NCBI RefSeq assembly: GCF_002892535.1
Contig: NZ_CP024847.1
Location: 558,001 to 622,000, forward strand
Length of the DNA stretch: 64,000 nt
Origin: Aquella oligotrophica
GTDB taxonomy: Bacteria; Pseudomonadota; Gammaproteobacteria; Burkholderiales; UBA11063
Reading direction: 5' to 3'
This document shows, in pieces, positions 2,721 to 61,294 of the stretch. Below the pieces are notes generated by a model. The model was not told the origin of the DNA and made no database searches. It saw only the letters and a list, made by a program, of their open reading frames with translations. The translations under genes were made by a program, and so were the position numbers. Each line of letters begins with the position of its first letter. Position 1 is the first letter of the stretch.

Positions 2721-5700
2721 ATGAGTGATTTTGTTCATCTACGATTACATACTGAGTTTTCAGTAACTGACAGTACGCTTAGGATTAAGCCAACTATTAA
2801 GCAGGCAAAAAATTTTAATATGCTTGCTTTAGCCATGACTGATTTGCAAAATATGTTTGGCTTGGTGAAATTTTATAAAGGTTGCCGCGAAGCTGGAATA
2901 AAGCCAATAATTGGCAGTGAGATTAATGTTGAGGGTGCTGAATTTAACTATTGTTTATTGGTACTTGCAAAAAATCTGGCTGGTTATCGTCAGATTTGCG
3001 AATGGCTTACTAGATCATATGTTGAGAATAAAATTCTTGATATGCCCTACATTAAGGAAGACTGGCTAAGATCGACTTCGTGCCAAGATGTGATTCTACT
3101 TTCTGGTGCAGATCATGGGGACGTAGGCCAGTATTTGAAACAAAATCGCTACAAAGATGCTTTATCAGCCGCTCAGAAATGGCAAGAAGCCTTTGCTGAT
3201 AATTATTTCCTTGAGTTGCAACGAGTTTCATACCAAGATAGCGAAGATCTCTTGCAGGAAACTGTCAAGCTAAGTTCTGAATTGCAAATTCCTTTGGTAG
3301 CTACCCACCCAGTTCAATTTTTAAAACCCGAAGACTATACTGCTCATGAGGTTCGTGTCTGCGTTGCCGATGGTGAGATTCTTGATGATGCAAGACGTGT
3401 TTCTAAATATAGCGAGGATCAATATTTTAAATCTGCCGAAGAAATGCATCAGCTTTTTGCTGATATTCCAATTGCACTTACAAATAGTTTAGAAATAGCC
3501 AAAAAGTGTAATTTGGAACTAACTCTGGGTAAATATTTTCTGCCAAATTTTGCAACTCCCGATGGACAGCTACTTGATGAATACCTGTCATCACTATCAT
3601 ATAAAGGTTTAGAGCAGCGGCTTATTGAATTATTTCCGGATGAAAATATCCGTAAAGAAAATACTGAAACTTACTCTAAGCGACTTGAACGCGAGATTGA
3701 AACGATTATTCAGATGGGCTTTGCCGGATATTTCCTAATCGTTGCTGACTTCATTATCTGGGCAAAAAATAACGGTGTGCCCGTTGGACCGGGGCGTGGC
3801 TCAGGCGCAGGCTCTCTAGTTGCGTTTAGTTTGGGTATTACTGATATTGATCCCCTTCGTTATAGCCTTCTTTTTGAGCGCTTTCTTAACCCAGAACGGG
3901 TGTCAATGCCGGATTTTGATATCGACTTTTGTCAAGATAAACGTGAACGAGTAATTCAGTATGTGCAGGATAAGTATGGTGCAGATGCTGTTTCACAGAT
4001 AGCAACATTTGGTACTATGTCATCCAAAGCAGTAATCAAGGATGTAGGTAGGGCACTTGGCTTACCTTATGGTTTATGTGATTCAATTTCTAAACTTATC
4101 CAGAATACTCCAGCAAAAAGCTGGTCGCTTGAAGATGCCTATAATGAGTTTCCAGAATTAAAAGCTAGAATTGATAATGCTGATGATGATTTATTACGCT
4201 TATGGGAAACCTCCAAGCAGCTTGAAGATTTAACCAGAAATGTTGGTAAGCATGCAGCTGGCGTTTTGATTGCACCAAGTAAATTATCTGATTTCTGTCC
4301 GCTATATGTCGCGGATGGTATGCAAACTTCACAGCTAGATAAGGATGATGTTGAAACCATTGGCTTAGTTAAATTTGACTTTTTGGGCTTACGCAATCTA
4401 ACGATTATTCAGGAGGCTGTTGAGAATATTGAGCGCCTACATGGAGTAAGATTACATCTATCTAATTCTGAATTTGAAGATCCAAATGTTTATAAGCTTT
4501 TGCAAGCTGGAAATACGACTGCAATATTTCAGCTAGAGTCGCAGGGAATGAAACGTTTACTGGTGAAACTTGAACCCAGCCGTTTTGAAGATATTATTGC
4601 TGTATTGGCACTTTATCGTCCTGGACCTTTAGGTTCTGGGATGGTTGATGATTTTGTTAAGCGAAAAAAAGGTGAGGCTGAGATAGATTACTTTCACCCC
4701 GATTTACGCGATTGTCTTGACCCAACTTATGGGGTGATTGTTTATCAAGAACAGGTAATGCAGATTTCGCAGACTATTGGTGGTTATACGCTCGGGGGGC
4801 TGATCTTCTGCGTCGTGCTATGGGTAAAAAGAAGCCAGAAGAAATGGCAAAGCACCGGGCAATATTTACTGAAGGTGCACTAGCTAAGGGCTATGATAAA
4901 GATTTAGCCGAACGGTTATTTGATTTGATGGCAATGTTTGCCGAATATGGGTTTAATAAATCACATACCGCTGCTTATGCGGTTGTTTCATATCACACCG
5001 CATATCTTAAAGCTTATTATCCAGCATCATTTATGGCGGCAACTTTATCCTCAGAGTTGGATAAAACTGACAAGCTTTATGAGTTTTATCAGGATTGTGT
5101 CGATAATAAACTTGAAATATTACCACCGGACATTAATAAATCTTTTTATCGCTTTACGCCTGTAGCTGAGAAGAGGGGCGAAAAAGGTGGTTCAATCCGC
5201 TATGCGCTGGGTGCAATTAAGGGGATTGGTCAGAATGTCGTTGATATTATTGTTGCCGAACGGGAAAAAAATGGTGATTATAAAGATATAATTGATTTTT
5301 GCCGCCGAGTGGATAAGAAGGCAATCAATAAACGGACTCTAGAGAATTTGATAAAGGCTGGAGCATTTGATGCGCTTGAAGCTAATCGAGCTAAGTTATT
5401 TAATAATCTTGGTAAGATAATCGAGTTTGTCGAGCAGGAACGTCTGAATGAAAATCAGGGTTCGCTTTTTGATGTGTTTGGCAGTGAAGAACCAGAATTA
5501 ACGACTATTGAACTTGATGAATATCCGCCATTTAATACCAAAGATCAGCTAACTTTGGAAAAACAGGCAATCGGTTATTATCTCTCTGGTAGCCTATTTC
5601 AGGATTATCATGATATTTGTAAAAAGCTTGAGATTGTCTCTTTAAGCAAATTTAACTTAGAAGATGAAGATATTCAAGAGATTATTAATGCTCGTTATGA

Positions 5701-6226
5701 AAAGCATAAGCCAAAGGTATTAATTGGTGGGATAATTAACTATATGGGGTCGCGCCCAACTAAGAGCGGTGGTAAAATTGGTTTTATTCGGATTGAAGAT
5801 GATAGTGGTGAACTTGAATTTGTAATTTTCAATCAAGAATACGATAAATATAATCACTTATTGAAAATGGATGAGTTGGTTTTTGTTATTGGAGAAGTTA
5901 GTTACGATTCATTTCGTGATGAAATCAAGGTTAATGCGAATCAGGTGTTACAGTTAAATGAAGTGATTGCTAATCGGGTAAATTTGTTTGAACTTGAGTT
6001 AAGCAATGTTGATAACTGGCAACAATTACAAAAGTATTTGAGTTTATCGGCTGAAGGTACAATTCCATTAAAAATACGTTATAAAAATGAATCTGGACAG
6101 TGCTATTTACGCTTGGGTGAGGGATATCAAATCAGCAATCTAAGTTATGAGAATCTTGATGAAATAAGTAATCTTCTTGGCGAAAATGGAAAAAGCCGCT
6201 GGAGGTTTGGTATTAATCAGGTATAA
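2721..6226 (+). CDS. dnaE: DNA polymerase III alpha subunit, with a frameshift at a G6 run
   Basis: Replicative polymerase. The N-terminal PHP domain begins VHLRLHTEFSV. The catalytic aspartates sit in PDFDIDFCQDKRERV, and KFDFLGLRNLTII carries the third. A C-terminal OB fold (GGIINYMGSRPTKSGGKIG) follows. The first frame runs 2721-4883 and the second runs to 6226. They join at 4794-4799 (GGGGGG): the first frame reads YTLGG then nonsense, while one base back it reads [21 protein letters not shown], exactly the family sequence. The joined product would be about 1168 residues, a normal length. Because dnaE is essential, either a base is missing from the assembly or the ribosome or RNA polymerase slips by one at the G run. 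The clean continuation argues against decay. Confidence 0.95.
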
Positions 6227-17792: not shown

Positions 17793-18151
17793 TTGTGGAG
17801 CCGAAATAGTTGATAGTAGACAATACGGCAACACAATAGCGTAAGCTGGGTAGCTCACGCCTACCATGCTTCTTCAATCTGATTGAGTATAAGCATTGAC
17901 ACATCGGACTTACGACAATTTCAATTAGCAACAAATTAGCTACAAAATAATCAAAAAGTTCATATCTCCCTCCATAACCTCCTGACCTTTGGTCAGGATC
18001 TTGTTATGGGGTTACCTTCTTTTATCTATCTTATTACTCTTTAGTTAGATGGGTTATCCTTTATTTAGCATACACTGCCAATTTGGCAGATTGTCTAATG
18101 ATAGTTCTTCTGCTAGAATCTCGCAATATTTGGTTAATAATTGGGGGAATT
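17793..18151 (+). other. Gap between 5S and the PAS regulator, with a repeat fragment and two palindromes
   Basis: Bases 17859-17891 match the end of the dispersed repeat found at 49712 and 61152. Bases 17972-18009 fold as CCATAAC plus CCTGACC-TTT-GGTCAGG plus GTTATGG. Bases 18075-18089 (CTGCCAATTTGGCAG) are a perfect 15-bp palindrome about 60 bases before the regulator start, a candidate operator. No protein gene is seen here. Confidence 0.6.
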
Positions 18152-28189: not shown

Positions 28190-28552
28190 ATGTCAGTTAA
28201 AAGAATTGGAACAACCGCGAGGTGGTCGGATGCGGTGATTCACAATAATACAGTATATTTGGTAGAAGTGCCATCAAATCTTGATGGAAATATTAGTGAA
28301 CAAGCAAAAAATCTGCTTTCGTCAGTAGAGTCGCGATTGCTTGAGGTAGGTAGTAATAAGTCGAATATCTTAATGGCAACGATTTACCTTTCAAGTATTA
28401 ATCATATTGGTGCCTTTAATGAAATATGGGATGCTTGGCTTCCAGCGGGTACAGCTCCGGTTCGTGCATGTATTGAAGCAAGGTTGGCAAATTCGACATA
28501 TTTAGTTGAAATACAGTTAACTGCGGCATTAGGGCCTTCTAGGGTTAATTAA
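28190..28552 (+). CDS. RidA-family protein, YoaB-like
   Basis: 120 residues from ATG 28190, which has AGGTG nine bases upstream; a GTG at 28178 would overlap that site. KRIGTTARWSDAVIHNNTVYLVEVP, then SNKSNILMATIYLS and APVRACIEARLAN, follow E. coli YoaB closely. The Arg in PVRACIEA is the residue that binds the carboxylate of reactive enamine/imine intermediates in active RidA proteins. Deaminase activity is therefore plausible. Its stop overlaps the convergent gene for PAS regulator D by four bases. Confidence 0.87.
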   Translation: MSVKRIGTTARWSDAVIHNNTVYLVEVPSNLDGNISEQAKNLLSSVESRLLEVGSNKSNILMATIYLSSINHIGAFNEIWDAWLPAGTAPVRACIEARLANSTYLVEIQLTAALGPSRVN

Positions 28553-29322
28553 CATATCCACAAATCAAATACATCATGAGTAATGTCATGAGAACCTTCC
28601 GGTAGAAACTCTGCCGGAACGGCAACATCATATCCGTATTTAAAAGATACGTCCTTTAATGCATCACTGGTAGTTACATTAAAAATACTCTTTAATTTGA
28701 GTAATTGCTTATTCACGGCAGTTGGTGAAATTTTATGTCCAAATCTTGTCATCCAGTCAGCGATCTCCGTATATGAATAATTGCGCACATAAAGATAAAT
28801 AATCATTTGTTGTACCCGAGTTAAGGTTACTTCGGCAAAATCGTTGCGATTTAATGGGTAGTAGCCTTCTAATTTATGGAATTTAGCTCCCAGATTAGCA
28901 AGTCTTGCTACGGTAAAGGGCTTATACTGTAGATGCAAGCAAAGAAAATTATTGTCTAGATCAAATACAGGAGTTTTATGGACAATATATGCATCAACAA
29001 TGTTTTCATTTTTGCGCACTTCAAGATAAATTCGACGTTGATTTGTCTTAATTATTTCTGCATGAGTTCTGATAAGTTGTTCTATGCTACTTTCTTTAAA
29101 AATCCCTGGGATTTTTTTTATAAAATTTTCACCAATCTTGGGTGGTTTTTCTAGTTTCAATAACTGATTAAACGCTTCATTAACAAATAAAATCCGATTT
29201 AACTCGTCAAGTATTACAAATGCATATGCCAGTGAGTTAGACAATAAGCCGCAACTATCTATGTACTCTTTACGGTTAGTTGAGATTTTTTTGCGCTCTA
29301 ATTGGGTGTAATTATATTCCAT
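28549..29322 (-). CDS. PAS domain regulator with C-terminal HTH (family member D)
   Basis: 257 residues. A PAS-like region (SLAYAFVILDELNRILFVNEAFNQLL) is followed by a C-terminal HTH block: VTLTRVQQMIIYLYVRNYSYTEIADWMTRF, TAVNKQLLKLKSIFNV and VPAEFLPEG. It is the most divergent of the six but keeps the spacing. A perfect palindrome GGTATAAAAATTTATACC lies 70 bp upstream of its start (29392-29409), and the same palindrome precedes member E. It is divergent from an outer-membrane barrel gene. Confidence 0.7.
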   Translation of the reverse strand: MEYNYTQLERKKISTNRKEYIDSCGLLSNSLAYAFVILDELNRILFVNEAFNQLLKLEKPPKIGENFIKKIPGIFKESSIEQLIRTHAEIIKTNQRRIYLEVRKNENIVDAYIVHKTPVFDLDNNFLCLHLQYKPFTVARLANLGAKFHKLEGYYPLNRNDFAEVTLTRVQQMIIYLYVRNYSYTEIADWMTRFGHKISPTAVNKQLLKLKSIFNVTTSDALKDVSFKYGYDVAVPAEFLPEGSHDITHDVFDLWIC

Positions 29323-29391: not shown

Positions 29392-29409
29392 GGTATAAAA
29401 ATTTATACC
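29392..29409. promoter_or_regulatory. Palindrome shared by PAS regulators D and E, copy 1
   Basis: GGTATAAAAATTTATACC has perfect 8-bp arms. It is followed by CATTTTG and GGTG, as in copy 2. It lies between member D (minus strand) and the beta-barrel gene (plus strand), 187 bases before the latter. A candidate operator for an autoregulating PAS-HTH protein. Confidence 0.6.
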
Positions 29410-29595
29410 TCATCATTTTGTGGTGTCTAGTGATAACGAATACTTTTGTATCTGCATCTATTGACTTGTCTTATTTTTGAGAAATGGTGTTTTCTTTGGA
29501 TGGATGTTTGTGGGTGTTTTTGCCCGTATACCAGTAGTGTAGCGAGAGCTTACAATTGCTAGTGTGTAATTATTTTAAGAAAGCAAGTGATTTAA

Positions 29596-30144
29596 ATGAA
29601 TAAATTAAAAGTAATGGCAGTTTGTTTGGGGCTTGTTGCATTAAGTAATGCAGATCAACTAACTGGAAGTGGAGCATACATTAATGCCAACGCTGGTTTT
29701 GGGACAATGCAGTATTTACCAACAGGTTCATTTGCCGCGACCTTAAATGCAGGCTATGCTTTTAACCGCTCATTTGGTTTAGAGGGTGGCTATGCATGGT
29801 TACCAAGCAGTCAGTATGGAGCATCACAATATAATAATATTTTTGATGTGGCAGCAAAAGGAACTTTGCCATTAAGTCGTGTTTTTGCTTTATATGGGCG
29901 TTTGGGAGCTGGTCTTAACTATCAAAGCTTTAGTGGCACAACTAATCCGGGCACTCCATCATCTTACTGTCAGAATAGTACGATGTCAAATTTTGTAGGT
30001 TTAGCAGGAGTGGGAGGATCATTTGCGATTAGTAATCATTTTGATTTACGAGTAGAAGATACAATTTATGTACCATTTGGTGGCGGAAATCAGAGTGCTG
30101 GAGCAACGAATTTGGTACTGGGTGGTGTACAGTACAATTTCTAA
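29596..30144 (+). CDS. Outer-membrane beta-barrel protein, OmpA/OmpX-like size
   Basis: 182 residues with a signal peptide (cleavage about SNA-DQ, residues 19-20) and alternating hydrophobic strands rich in Gly and aromatics (GSGAYINANAGFG, GLEGGYAWLP, LYGRLGAGLNYQ, LVLGGVQYNF). The terminal Phe is the usual BAM-recognition end. About eight strands fit. A cysteine (SYCQNS) lies in a predicted surface loop. Role unknown. A hairpin follows at 30178. Confidence 0.85.
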   Translation: MNKLKVMAVCLGLVALSNADQLTGSGAYINANAGFGTMQYLPTGSFAATLNAGYAFNRSFGLEGGYAWLPSSQYGASQYNNIFDVAAKGTLPLSRVFALYGRLGAGLNYQSFSGTTNPGTPSSYCQNSTMSNFVGLAGVGGSFAISNHFDLRVEDTIYVPFGGGNQSAGATNLVLGGVQYNF

Positions 30145-30177
30145 ATAGCAACATTATAAAAGATTCCTTCATGAGAG

Positions 30178-30216
30178 CAGGGTGATAGACAAGAAATATC
30201 ATCCTGTTTATTTTGA
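30178..30216 (+). terminator. Terminator after the beta-barrel gene
   Basis: CAGGGTGATA and TATCATCCTG pair over 10 bp with one G-U, with a 9-base loop, then TTTATTTT. Confidence 0.78.
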
Positions 30217-30304
30217 GAGATGACCATATTTACTAAAGCAAAACTAAGTATACATGGTAGATAAGAAATAAAAAATATAGAAATAATTGGTATAAGAGGC
30301 ATGC

Positions 30305-32410
30305 ATGAAAAATCTGACAACAAAGACATTCGTACATGGAAGAAGTCGTAGGATTCAGAATCTGGCATTAGCAGGGATAACCGCAGCGGTATTAAGTGCG
30401 TGTGGAGGCGGAAGCGGTGGCTGCTGCACAGTTCCACCTAATGGAAATAGTCAATTAATCTTTGTAGCCCCAAGTATCTTACCTTCATTAGCGAACAAGA
30501 CAGGTATCAACTACATGGGAGTATATAACCCATCAGATGTAGCGATAAGTGGAATCAAGTATAGTGTTGGGCAGCAGGTAGGCTCAGGAAATAGCATAAC
30601 CATGGATCAGGCAAGTGCATTAGCCTGTGCAAATATAGCAGCAAAAAGTAGCTGTTACCTGAAATTCTCAGTACCAGAATCAACAATAGCAGGAGGTACG
30701 GTAGTAAGTGCAATAGATAGTAATGGAGCCGAAGCAGCAACACCGTTAGCAATTGGAGTGCAACAAGTACCATATAGCGAATCAGCCAATGCAAATGGAG
30801 TAGGCTTATATTTCTATCCCAAAGCGCAATATAGCGAAAGCGGAGTACCATTTATCTTGGTAACCGCAGTAGTGCAGTCACCAAATGTAGGGACAATCAA
30901 TACGATAGAGTTGGTAGATGAAAGTGGGAATGTAATTCCGAACCAGATGGTAACAAGTAATAACGCAGGACCAGGTAGTTCACCGCTACAAATGGGAGAT
31001 GTAGTAGAGATAGAGTTACCGATTCCGCAGGGAGTAAACCTGACGCAGAATATCAAAGTACAGACATCGTACCAGACACTAGCTACATCAGCGGTAAGTA
31101 GCTTAGCCGAGAGACTAAACCTGAAGAGTGAGGCATTAAAAGCTACGACAAATAGTAGTACGAGTACAGCAACCTATACACTGACTACACAGGGAAATAA
31201 CATCAATCTGCAATTAACACCAAATCAGGTGTATCTGACACAGAAAGATTCAATCCAGTATGGTTACTTATACAATATAGGAGATTTGACAGCATCACAG
31301 ATAACGGTAACGAGCAGCAGTCCGAATGTGAAGATAACAGTAGCAGATGAGATATTAAATGGACAGCGAGTAATCAAGGTAACGTATGAGTTGATTAATA
31401 CAAGTGTAGCACCGACAACAAATGCGGTACTAGTAACAGGAACGAACCCGAGTGGACAGACAGAGACAAGTACTGGGGGTACAAGTCAAAATGTGAATCC
31501 AGATGTGGTGCCGACACCAACGCCAAGTCCGACACCTACCCCGACTCCAACGCCTACTCCGGGACCAGGTCCATCTCCTGGACCTGCATTGACTGTCACA
31601 ACCAGTGCAACTGTTACCGCAGGTGCAGAATGCCGTGACGTTACAGTTACAGCCCCTTCCCCAGTTTTATTAGATACTACTGTAACGGTTACCATAAATC
31701 CTACTTCTGCTAATGCTTATGGGTTTGGATCAGGTCCTAGTGGAGCACCATTTTCAGGAACTGCAACTTGTACTATATTTGCAACCAATCCTTCTTGTAC
31801 TATTGGTGATGGAAATGGTTTATGTGCTGCTACAGGTACTGGTGGTACAGAATTTACTATTATTGCAAGTGCAACTGGGTATCAAAATGGTAGTACGCCA
31901 GTTACAATTGCATCCCCACCTGCACCAACTTCTTGTGGCGGTGGAAATTGCCGTATTTTTGCAACATCAAGTGCTACTGATGGTGATTTGGTGTCTGCGG
32001 CTGTTTCTGCTGGCGGTACTAATATTACTACTGGTTTTGAAGCTGCCAATTACTTATGCCAGAATGATACAAATAATCCTGTGTCAGGAAGTACATACTG
32101 GAAAGCAATGCTAGAAGGGAATAGTGCAACTAATAATGGAACAGTTTACTATCGTCCAGATCAAACTACTCAAATTGGTATTGGTAATGGAAACAATTTG
32201 GCAAGTTTAGATAATTTCGTAGCTCCATCTGTGAGTTGGGTTTGGACAGGGGGGCAAGGTGCCGGTTATAATTGTAGTGATTGGACATCGGGTTCAGGAT
32301 CCGTTTCAGGAACAACAGGTTGGGGTGATACGCCTCAATATTGGATCTCGAATTGGCCGGTTTGTACTCAGCAGGCTTATCTTTATTGTGTAGAACAATT
32401 CCATAATTAA
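30305..32410 (+). CDS. Large secreted lipoprotein with shared N-terminal module, PT linker and DUF1554-like C-terminus
   Basis: 701 residues. A long basic N-region and lipobox LSAC precede CGGGSGG. Residues about 50-380 form a beta-rich module (YMGVYNPSDVAISGIKYSVG, CYLKFSVPES, QVYLTQKDS) that recurs in the protein at 41057. A PTPTPSPTPTP linker (about 400-425) follows. The C-terminal part from CGGGNCRIFATSS to AYLYCVEQ, with YWKAMLEG and WVWTGGQGA, matches the DUF1554 domain seen in Leptospira-type surface proteins. Codon choice changes from A-ending to T-ending after the linker. AAGAGG precedes ATG 30305. A G6 run at about 32251 stays in frame. Confidence 0.8.
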   Translation: MKNLTTKTFVHGRSRRIQNLALAGITAAVLSACGGGSGGCCTVPPNGNSQLIFVAPSILPSLANKTGINYMGVYNPSDVAISGIKYSVGQQVGSGNSITMDQASALACANIAAKSSCYLKFSVPESTIAGGTVVSAIDSNGAEAATPLAIGVQQVPYSESANANGVGLYFYPKAQYSESGVPFILVTAVVQSPNVGTINTIELVDESGNVIPNQMVTSNNAGPGSSPLQMGDVVEIELPIPQGVNLTQNIKVQTSYQTLATSAVSSLAERLNLKSEALKATTNSSTSTATYTLTTQGNNINLQLTPNQVYLTQKDSIQYGYLYNIGDLTASQITVTSSSPNVKITVADEILNGQRVIKVTYELINTSVAPTTNAVLVTGTNPSGQTETSTGGTSQNVNPDVVPTPTPSPTPTPTPTPTPGPGPSPGPALTVTTSATVTAGAECRDVTVTAPSPVLLDTTVTVTINPTSANAYGFGSGPSGAPFSGTATCTIFATNPSCTIGDGNGLCAATGTGGTEFTIIASATGYQNGSTPVTIASPPAPTSCGGGNCRIFATSSATDGDLVSAAVSAGGTNITTGFEAANYLCQNDTNNPVSGSTYWKAMLEGNSATNNGTVYYRPDQTTQIGIGNGNNLASLDNFVAPSVSWVWTGGQGAGYNCSDWTSGSGSVSGTTGWGDTPQYWISNWPVCTQQAYLYCVEQFHN

Positions 32411-32444
32411 TTGTTATACTATTAATGTTATATAATAAATAAAA

Positions 32445-32471
32445 GGCAATGCTAATAATATTAGCATTGCC
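32445..32471 (-). terminator. Hairpin terminator between the lipoprotein and PAS regulator E
   Basis: GGCAATGCTAAT and ATTAGCATTGCC form a perfect 12-bp stem with a 3-base loop. On the minus strand it is followed by TTTTATTTATT, so it best ends regulator E, and it may work both ways. Confidence 0.82.
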
Positions 32472-32579
32472 AATAGCTAATTTCATGTTAATGCATGATC
32501 TTTTAATCAAGTTAACTGATTAATTATGAAATTGGCTACAAATTGTTTTTTTAATTATGCTACTATATTATTGATTATA

Positions 32580-33290
32580 TTAACGACTTAGATCAATAAA
32601 GCGATTGCTTAAAAGAGAGTTTGGTATTTTATTGTGATAGCCGTGTAGTTGTAATTTAGCCAATAGACTATCTTTATTACTAACGTTAAATTTTGGGTAT
32701 AGATAACGACTAACTATATTCCGTACCGTTTTCTCGGTAATAATTCGCTGATTAAATCGACTGATAATTTCTGCAATTTCTACATAGCTTGAGCAGTAAA
32801 ACAATAAAAAGGCAATCTGATGTTCACGCTTAGTTAAAAATTCATCATTATGTGGTAAATTATTATTTACTATTGGTTGCGCGTTTTTTATCAATATTTG
32901 AAAAAACGTATCAATTTTTATTGTACAAAATTCAAAGCGTAAGCCAATGACGTATCTTGTATTTGGTTCCATAATGGGTGAAATACAAGCGCCTAAAACT
33001 TGTATTTTATCCTCAATTTTATGTAGTAAGTTCGCAATTAATACTGGAACTGTTATACCTTCGGTTATTGCTTTGTTAAAGGCTTTGAGTGATGGTTGAA
33101 TATTTTCATCCGGTATAAGTGCTGTTGCATGAATATGTTTGCCAACAACTGATTGCAGATTTTTATTTCCCACTTTTAAGTATTGATTTCCTGCAAATCT
33201 TGCAATTAAATCTCTATCAAGGACAATCATAAAGGTATCACTGTAAAAATCTTCACAGTGTCTTATATATTTTTCAAGATGCTTATTCAT
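32580..33290 (-). CDS. PAS domain regulator with C-terminal HTH (family member E)
   Basis: 236 residues from ATG 33290; a longer reading needs TTG 33317. The N-terminal sensor part (MIVLDRDLIARFAGNQYLKVG) is PAS-like but loose. The C-terminal HTH is typical of the family: LTKREHQIAFLLFYCSSYVEIAEII, TVRNIVSRYLYPKFNVSNKDSLL and KIPNSLL. The same palindrome that stands before member D lies about 180 bp upstream (33469-33488), with no other plus-strand gene nearby to claim it. A terminator follows. Confidence 0.72.
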   Translation of the reverse strand: MNKHLEKYIRHCEDFYSDTFMIVLDRDLIARFAGNQYLKVGNKNLQSVVGKHIHATALIPDENIQPSLKAFNKAITEGITVPVLIANLLHKIEDKIQVLGACISPIMEPNTRYVIGLRFEFCTIKIDTFFQILIKNAQPIVNNNLPHNDEFLTKREHQIAFLLFYCSSYVEIAEIISRFNQRIITEKTVRNIVSRYLYPKFNVSNKDSLLAKLQLHGYHNKIPNSLLSNRFIDLSR

Positions 33291-33468
33291 TCGGACTATT
33301 ATTGTTATTTTAATCAATTATTTATATAGACATGATTGTAAGTGTTTAATGAATTAATTGTATATGGGCAGAAATACCCACAATTAAGCTGCTGTTAAAA
33401 CTTTTGTTAAAATGTGTATATATAACAATTGGATATTTGAGTGTGTTGAGGCTGATTATAATGTTTTA

Positions 33469-33488
33469 GGGTATAAAAATTTATACCC
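33469..33488. promoter_or_regulatory. Palindrome shared by PAS regulators D and E, copy 2
   Basis: GGGTATAAAAATTTATACCC has perfect 9-bp arms; its 18-bp core is identical to copy 1 at 29392. Flanking GCTGATT upstream and CATTTTG plus GGTGGTG downstream also recur. The only gene it can serve by position is regulator E on the minus strand. Confidence 0.62.
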
Positions 33489-61151: not shown

Positions 61152-61260
61152 TATACTTAAACAGATTCATCATCCTGGGTTTGTTGCTAAGCTCTTTGCT
61201 TACTAGTTGTAGGCAACAGCGCTTGGTCGCCTACCATGAATCTTCAATCTGATTGAGTAT
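61152..61260 (+). repeat. Dispersed element R1, full-length copy before argD
   Basis: Begins TATACTTAAACAGATTC three bases after the carB stop and ends CTTCAATCTGATTGAGTATA. The last 33 bases are identical to the reverse complement of 49714-49746. GTAGGC and GCCTAC form an internal stem. It separates carB from argD and supplies a spurious in-frame TTG (61253). Confidence 0.75.
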
Positions 61261-61294
61261 ATTTAATTTAGATAACAGTAGAGGAAAACTAACA

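What the first reader, a model, noticed from the sequence alone, without database searches (positions are those of the whole stretch)
29392..33488. An identical 18-bp palindrome stands before two of the PAS regulators
GGTATAAAAATTTATACC at 29392-29409 and 33470-33487 is perfect, with similar flanks (GCTGATT before, CATTTTG-GGTG after). Each lies upstream of a PAS-HTH gene, and copy 2 can serve only that gene. This looks like an operator for the family itself.
Basis: partly seen in the sequence, partly recalled or inferred. Interest (0 to 1): 0.65.

Follow-up and report, generated by a model that had tools for sequence, protein, structure and literature searches.

The report
Paired operators of a surface-protein regulon
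Two identical 18-letter mirror-image DNA sites, the only two in this freshwater bacterium's genome, are probably control switches for a gene pair encoding cell-surface proteins and for the neighbouring sensor-regulator genes, an arrangement also seen around quorum-sensing regulators of Vibrio and one of its phages.

Summary
GGTATAAAAATTTATACC (P1) is perfect at 29392-29409 and 33470-33487, and these are the only copies with 0-1 mismatch in the 2.82-Mb Aquella oligotrophica chromosome. The claimed flank similarity is weak. P1 is not an operator of the PAS-regulator family: about 55 such genes exist and only D and E carry it. In two related species P1 also stands upstream of four orthologues of the outer-membrane-barrel gene 29596-30144 (two strong matches, two weak), and in one of them beside the E orthologue. 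A second palindrome, P2 (GTGGGY-N6-RCCCRY), lies between P1 and both the OMP gene and E, but not D; it precedes a conserved -10-like hexamer and would be centred near -43. P2 recurs at both P1-bearing OMP promoters of one relative. The best-supported unit is therefore a small regulon: E plus the OMP/lipoprotein pair, with D possibly included. D and E are full-length relatives of VqmA, a quorum-sensing PAS-LuxR regulator that binds GG-Nx-CC palindromes; its phage homologue controls itself and an adjacent gene from one intergenic region. Which protein binds which palindrome is unproven.

The parts
29392..29409 (.). P1 copy 1, GGTATAAAAATTTATACC, in the D/OMP divergent intergenic region
33470..33487 (.). 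P1 copy 2 (20-bp palindrome 33469-33488), upstream of E
29510..29527 (+). P2 copy 1, GTGGGTGTTTTTGCCCGT, upstream of OMP; centre 118 bp from P1 centre
33364..33381 (-). P2 copy 2, GTGGGTATTTCTGCCCAT, upstream of E; centre 106 bp from P1 centre
29551..29556 (+). -10-like hexamer TACAAT of OMP, position 42 counted from the first base of P2
   Evidence: predicted only
33335..33340 (-). -10-like hexamer TACAAT of E, same position relative to P2
   Evidence: predicted only
29596..30144 (+). OMP: outer-membrane beta-barrel gene
   Evidence: Pfam PF13505 E=6.8e-14
30305..32410 (+). Lipoprotein-like surface protein gene, probably co-transcribed with OMP
   Evidence: ORF; DUF1554 E=1.5e-8
32580..33290 (-). 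E: PAS-HTH regulator, VqmA-like
28549..29322 (-). D: PAS-HTH regulator, VqmA-like; P1 copy 1 lies 70-87 bp before its start codon
29670..31333 (+). Body of OMP plus 5' part of the lipoprotein gene, 98.9% identical to the locus at 118 kb; the identity begins after the promoter and signal-peptide codons

Best explanation
P1 is a transcription-factor operator. Together with a second palindrome, P2, about 80-120 bp nearer the gene, it controls a small local regulon: the regulator gene E and the OMP/lipoprotein pair (29596-32410), with the divergent regulator D possibly a further target through P1 copy 1. SHOWN: P1 and P2 stand in the same order before both E and OMP; P2 stands at the same distance from a -10-like hexamer at both; the arrangement recurs at two OMP promoters of another species. 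INFERRED: P2, centred near -43, is an activator site of the kind LuxR-family proteins use; P1 is a distal operator that helps or modulates; the proteins that bind are the locally encoded VqmA-like PAS-LuxR dimers. E is the likeliest binder of P2, and E or D of P1. The circuit would then be a ligand-sensing regulator that controls its own gene and an adjacent surface operon.
For: Only two P1 sites exist in the genome, both beside D, E and OMP. G005 carries two P1 copies (1 mismatch) between its E orthologue (60% identity) and the divergent OMP gene, and a weaker one (3 mismatches) before an unlinked OMP gene. G002 carries one 1-mismatch and one 3-mismatch site before OMP genes. P2 has only four exact matches in the own genome, two of them at these promoters, and two places in G005, both next to P1 at OMP genes. 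The P2-to--10 spacing is the same within 2 bp in four promoters. Outside the two palindromes the own promoters are not similar, so this is not simply a copied promoter. Both proteins match VqmA over full length: family profile E=1e-16, and VqmA is the top PDB fold match for E (1.6e-9) and D (1.4e-12). VqmA binds GG-N6-CC or GG-N9-CC palindromes, and VqmA-Phage activates itself and the neighbouring qtip from one intergenic region (PMC8284805). P2 occurs at these promoters only in the two genomes whose E has nearly the same recognition helix.
Against: No binding data exist. G002 has P1 at OMP genes but no D or E orthologue was found (87% complete assembly). G005 E has P1 but no P2 of its own, and G005 D has no P1. 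G022 has a 47% E relative without P1 or P2 in the 118 bp available. Two of the OMP-associated P1 matches carry 3 mismatches. P1 spacing (GG-N14-CC) is wider than known VqmA sites. Six of nine matches with 0-1 mismatch in relatives lie in coding or unrelated places.
Confidence: 0.6

Rival explanations
1. P1 is specifically D's operator: D activates its own gene from about -41 and reaches over to OMP and E, while P2 is E's operator. Two regulators share control of one surface operon.
For: Seen from D, P1 is centred near -41.5 of a guessed start (TAAAAT, read sequence); a P1-like site CGTATAAAAATTTATATC lies just upstream of the G014 D orthologue, in a genome with no close E. P1 occurs in three genomes with an intact D; P2 only in the two with a close E.
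Against: G005 D has no P1 nearby, and G002 has P1 without a D; the D promoter assignment is a guess, since a better consensus promoter overlaps its start codon.
Confidence: 0.25
2. P1 (and P2) are bound by a regulator of another family, not encoded here; the PAS-HTH neighbours are only targets.
For: P1 is present at OMP promoters in G002, where neither D nor E was found.
Against: In the own genome the whole P1 regulon lies within 4 kb around two regulator genes, typical of a locally encoded regulator.
Confidence: 0.2
3. P1 is an RNA hairpin or transcription terminator rather than a protein site.
For: P1 copy 2 folds well as RNA (z=-3.4), and the scan flags a terminator-like match at 33469-33488 on +.
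Against: No gene reads into the + orientation there; in the - orientation no T-run follows; copy 1 is not flagged. The predicted OMP and E transcripts start downstream of P1. No Rfam match.
Confidence: 0.06
4. The two copies are remnants of a recent local promoter duplication or of a small mobile repeat.
For: Two identical copies 4 kb apart.
Against: Flanks are 35-40% identical; only two genomic copies; conserved in promoters of other species.
Confidence: 0.04

Closest known systems
VqmA / PvqmR (Vibrio cholerae) and VqmA-Phage / Pqtip (phage VP882)
   Same: PAS-LuxR regulators with full-length sequence and fold similarity to D and E; short GG-Nx-CC palindromic sites; VqmA-Phage controls its own gene and the neighbouring gene from one intergenic region (PMC8284805), as in the G005 layout.
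   Different: About 16-19% identity in the fold alignments; here two different palindromes, GG-N14-CC (P1) and GG-N8-CC (P2), about 80-120 bp apart; the target is a surface OMP/lipoprotein pair, not a small RNA or antirepressor; ligand unknown.
lux-box promoters of LuxR-type regulators
   Same: Palindrome of about 18-20 bp centred near -42 and abutting the -35 region (P2); comparison from general knowledge.
   Different: Half-sites run GG...CC instead of the ACCTG-N10-CAGGT order; no acyl-homoserine-lactone domain in the regulators (PAS instead).

Membership tests
VqmA-like PAS-LuxR regulators (proteins D and E) | Full-length similarity to VqmA over PAS domain, HTH and C-terminal tail | tested here: met
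   Family profile E=1e-16 over profile positions 12-248; top PDB fold matches are VqmA
VqmA-like PAS-LuxR regulators (proteins D and E) | Binds 3,5-dimethylpyrazin-2-ol (DPO) | not tested
   Pocket residues were not compared; the low identity makes a different ligand likely
VqmA-like PAS-LuxR regulators (proteins D and E) | Recognises a GG-Nx-CC palindrome at its target promoter | tested here: inconclusive
   P1 and P2 have this form by inspection (PMC8284805); binding cannot be tested here
Operator (protein-binding promoter element) | Conserved in promoters of orthologous genes while surrounding DNA diverges | tested here: met
Operator of the PAS-HTH family as a whole | Present before many family members | tested here: not met
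   2 of about 55 PAS-HTH genes
lux box | ACCTG-N10-CAGGT-type half-sites | tested here: not met
   Both palindromes run GG...CC
Intrinsic terminator | GC-rich stem followed by T-run, downstream of a gene on the same strand | tested here: not met
   no suitable gene or T-run

The most novel reading that the evidence does not exclude
P1 and P2 are dedicated operators of two different VqmA-like receptors (D and E), which together gate one surface operon. Nearly identical copies of that OMP/lipoprotein cassette sit at three chromosomal places with different promoters, each next to a different VqmA-like regulator. The species would thus wire one exchangeable surface module to several small-molecule receptors through private palindromes.
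Probability: 0.2. Interest if true: 0.65.

Novelty: new member of a known kind. Interest (0 to 1): 0.42.

Why it matters
VqmA is a well-studied PAS-LuxR quorum-sensing receptor; this genome has about 55 relatives for which I found no known ligand, site or target. A predicted two-operator regulon with named target genes gives a concrete first case on which binding and ligand tests can be done, and suggests that these receptors control surface proteins.

Tried and rejected
Operator of the whole PAS-HTH family: rejected, since 2 of about 55 genes carry it. D/OMP site serving D alone: the second palindrome P2 points to OMP. Terminator or riboregulator: no fitting gene, no T-run, no Rfam match. Promoter duplication: flanks not similar. 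P1 matches in G011, G022, G009, G012 and one in G008 lie inside coding sequence and were discounted, as was a second one in G008 in an unrelated context; one G014 match lies in a glyoxalase-like gene. P1-P2 centre distances (118, 106, 92, 81 bp) are not clearly helix-phased. A genome-collection scan with the E family added only the two known relatives. Laying out the whole genome was not available, so genome-wide work was done by pattern and profile searches.

Full report
WHAT IS THERE. The window is G000:C1:558001-622000 of a 2,820,660-bp chromosome, the size published for Aquella oligotrophica P08 (PMC6612550). GGTATAAAAATTTATACC (P1) is perfect at 29392-29409 and 33470-33487. Genome-wide these are the only places with 0 or 1 mismatch; four places have 2 mismatches, all inside coding sequence; at 3 mismatches the count is no higher than the reversed control. 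In Markov shuffles of the window such palindromes appear about 1.6 times, but never the same one twice.

THE GENES. D (28549-29322, -) and E (32580-33290, -) are PAS-HTH regulators. Pfam is weak on them, but a profile of the family matches Vibrio VqmA over its full length at E=1e-16. Predicted structures (mean pLDDT 88.9 for E, 77.1 for D) have VqmA as best PDB match. The genome holds about 55 such genes. Between D and E lie an outer-membrane beta-barrel gene (OMP) and a lipoprotein-like gene, both on +.

FOOTPRINTING. P1 was sought in 22 genomes of the same genus. Of nine places with 0-1 mismatch, six are in coding or unrelated sequence and three are meaningful: two copies between the divergent E orthologue and OMP gene of G005, and one upstream of the OMP/lipoprotein pair of G002. 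Weaker copies (3 mismatches) stand at a comparable place before a second, unlinked OMP gene in G005 and a second one in G002. In G014 a P1-like site (2 mismatches) stands just upstream of the D orthologue, and another upstream of a lipoprotein gene. These nine sites were picked by similarity to P1, so the uniformity of the arms is partly by construction; the two central bases were left free in the search.

A SECOND PALINDROME. Upstream of OMP (29510-29527) and of E (33364-33381) lies P2, GTGGGY-N6-RCCCRY. It has four exact matches in the whole genome; the other two are in a gltD-like gene and between convergent genes. G005 has two places, both beside P1 at its two P1-bearing OMP genes. Single P2 matches also occur in several other genomes of the genus at about control level and were not followed. 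A TATAAT-like hexamer (5 of 6) lies at position 40-42 from the start of P2 in all four promoters, which would centre P2 near -43 of the transcript start. D has P1 but no P2. Centre distances P1-P2 are 118, 106, 92 and 81 bp. The two own promoters share little else.

HOW IT MAY WORK. The simplest reading is a local regulon of E plus OMP/lipoprotein, controlled by an activator bound at P2 with P1 as a distal site, and possibly D through P1 copy 1. VqmA offers a close parallel: it needs AGGGGGGATTTCCCCCCT at PvqmR (GG-N6-CC), and its phage homologue uses GG-N9-CC in the region between its own gene and qtip and activates both (PMC8284805). P2 is GG-N8-CC and P1 is GG-N14-CC. P2 stands at these promoters exactly where E keeps the recognition helix ITEKTxRNIVSRYLYPKF (own, G005) and not in G022, where the helix differs; for G022 only 118 bp upstream of E could be read, but that genome has no exact P2 at all. 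This favours E on P2. P1 follows D about as well as it follows E, and G002 carries P1 with neither, so the P1 binder is open. Binding, activation and ligand are all inferred.

WIDER SETTING. The OMP body and the 5' part of the lipoprotein gene are 98.9% identical to a locus at 118 kb, and the stretch 30007-31551 is 97.2% identical to one at 2340 kb. Identity with the 118-kb locus starts after the promoter and signal-peptide codons. Each of the other two loci has a different VqmA-like gene next to it and no P1 or P2. The same surface cassette thus appears beside different regulators.

VERDICT.

Noticed in passing
29670-31333 versus genome 118-120 kb (L157) and 2340 kb (L158): Three nearly identical OMP/lipoprotein cassettes (OMP only partial at 2340 kb) with different promoters, different lipoprotein 3' parts and a different VqmA-like regulator gene beside each; looks like recombination between surface cassettes.
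   Followed up: partly
17871-17891 and 61241-61261: TCTTCAATCTGATTGAGTATA, nine exact copies and four more with 1-2 mismatches genome-wide, preceded in the window by CGCCTACCATG; possibly the end of a mobile element.
   Followed up: partly
whole genome: About 55 VqmA-like PAS-HTH genes in one 2.8-Mb genome, a large expansion, several as tandem-domain proteins of about 500 aa. Perfect inverted repeats are enriched in their upstream regions (20 versus 6 expected; some are probably terminators).
   Followed up: partly
L169 (genome 19000-22500), 76 bp before the PAS-HTH gene at locus position 1188: Another operator-like palindrome, TATAGTAAAATTTACTATA.
   Followed up: no
2721-4883 and 4820-6226: The DNA polymerase III alpha-like coding region appears split into two overlapping frames (possible frameshift or sequencing error).
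   Followed up: no
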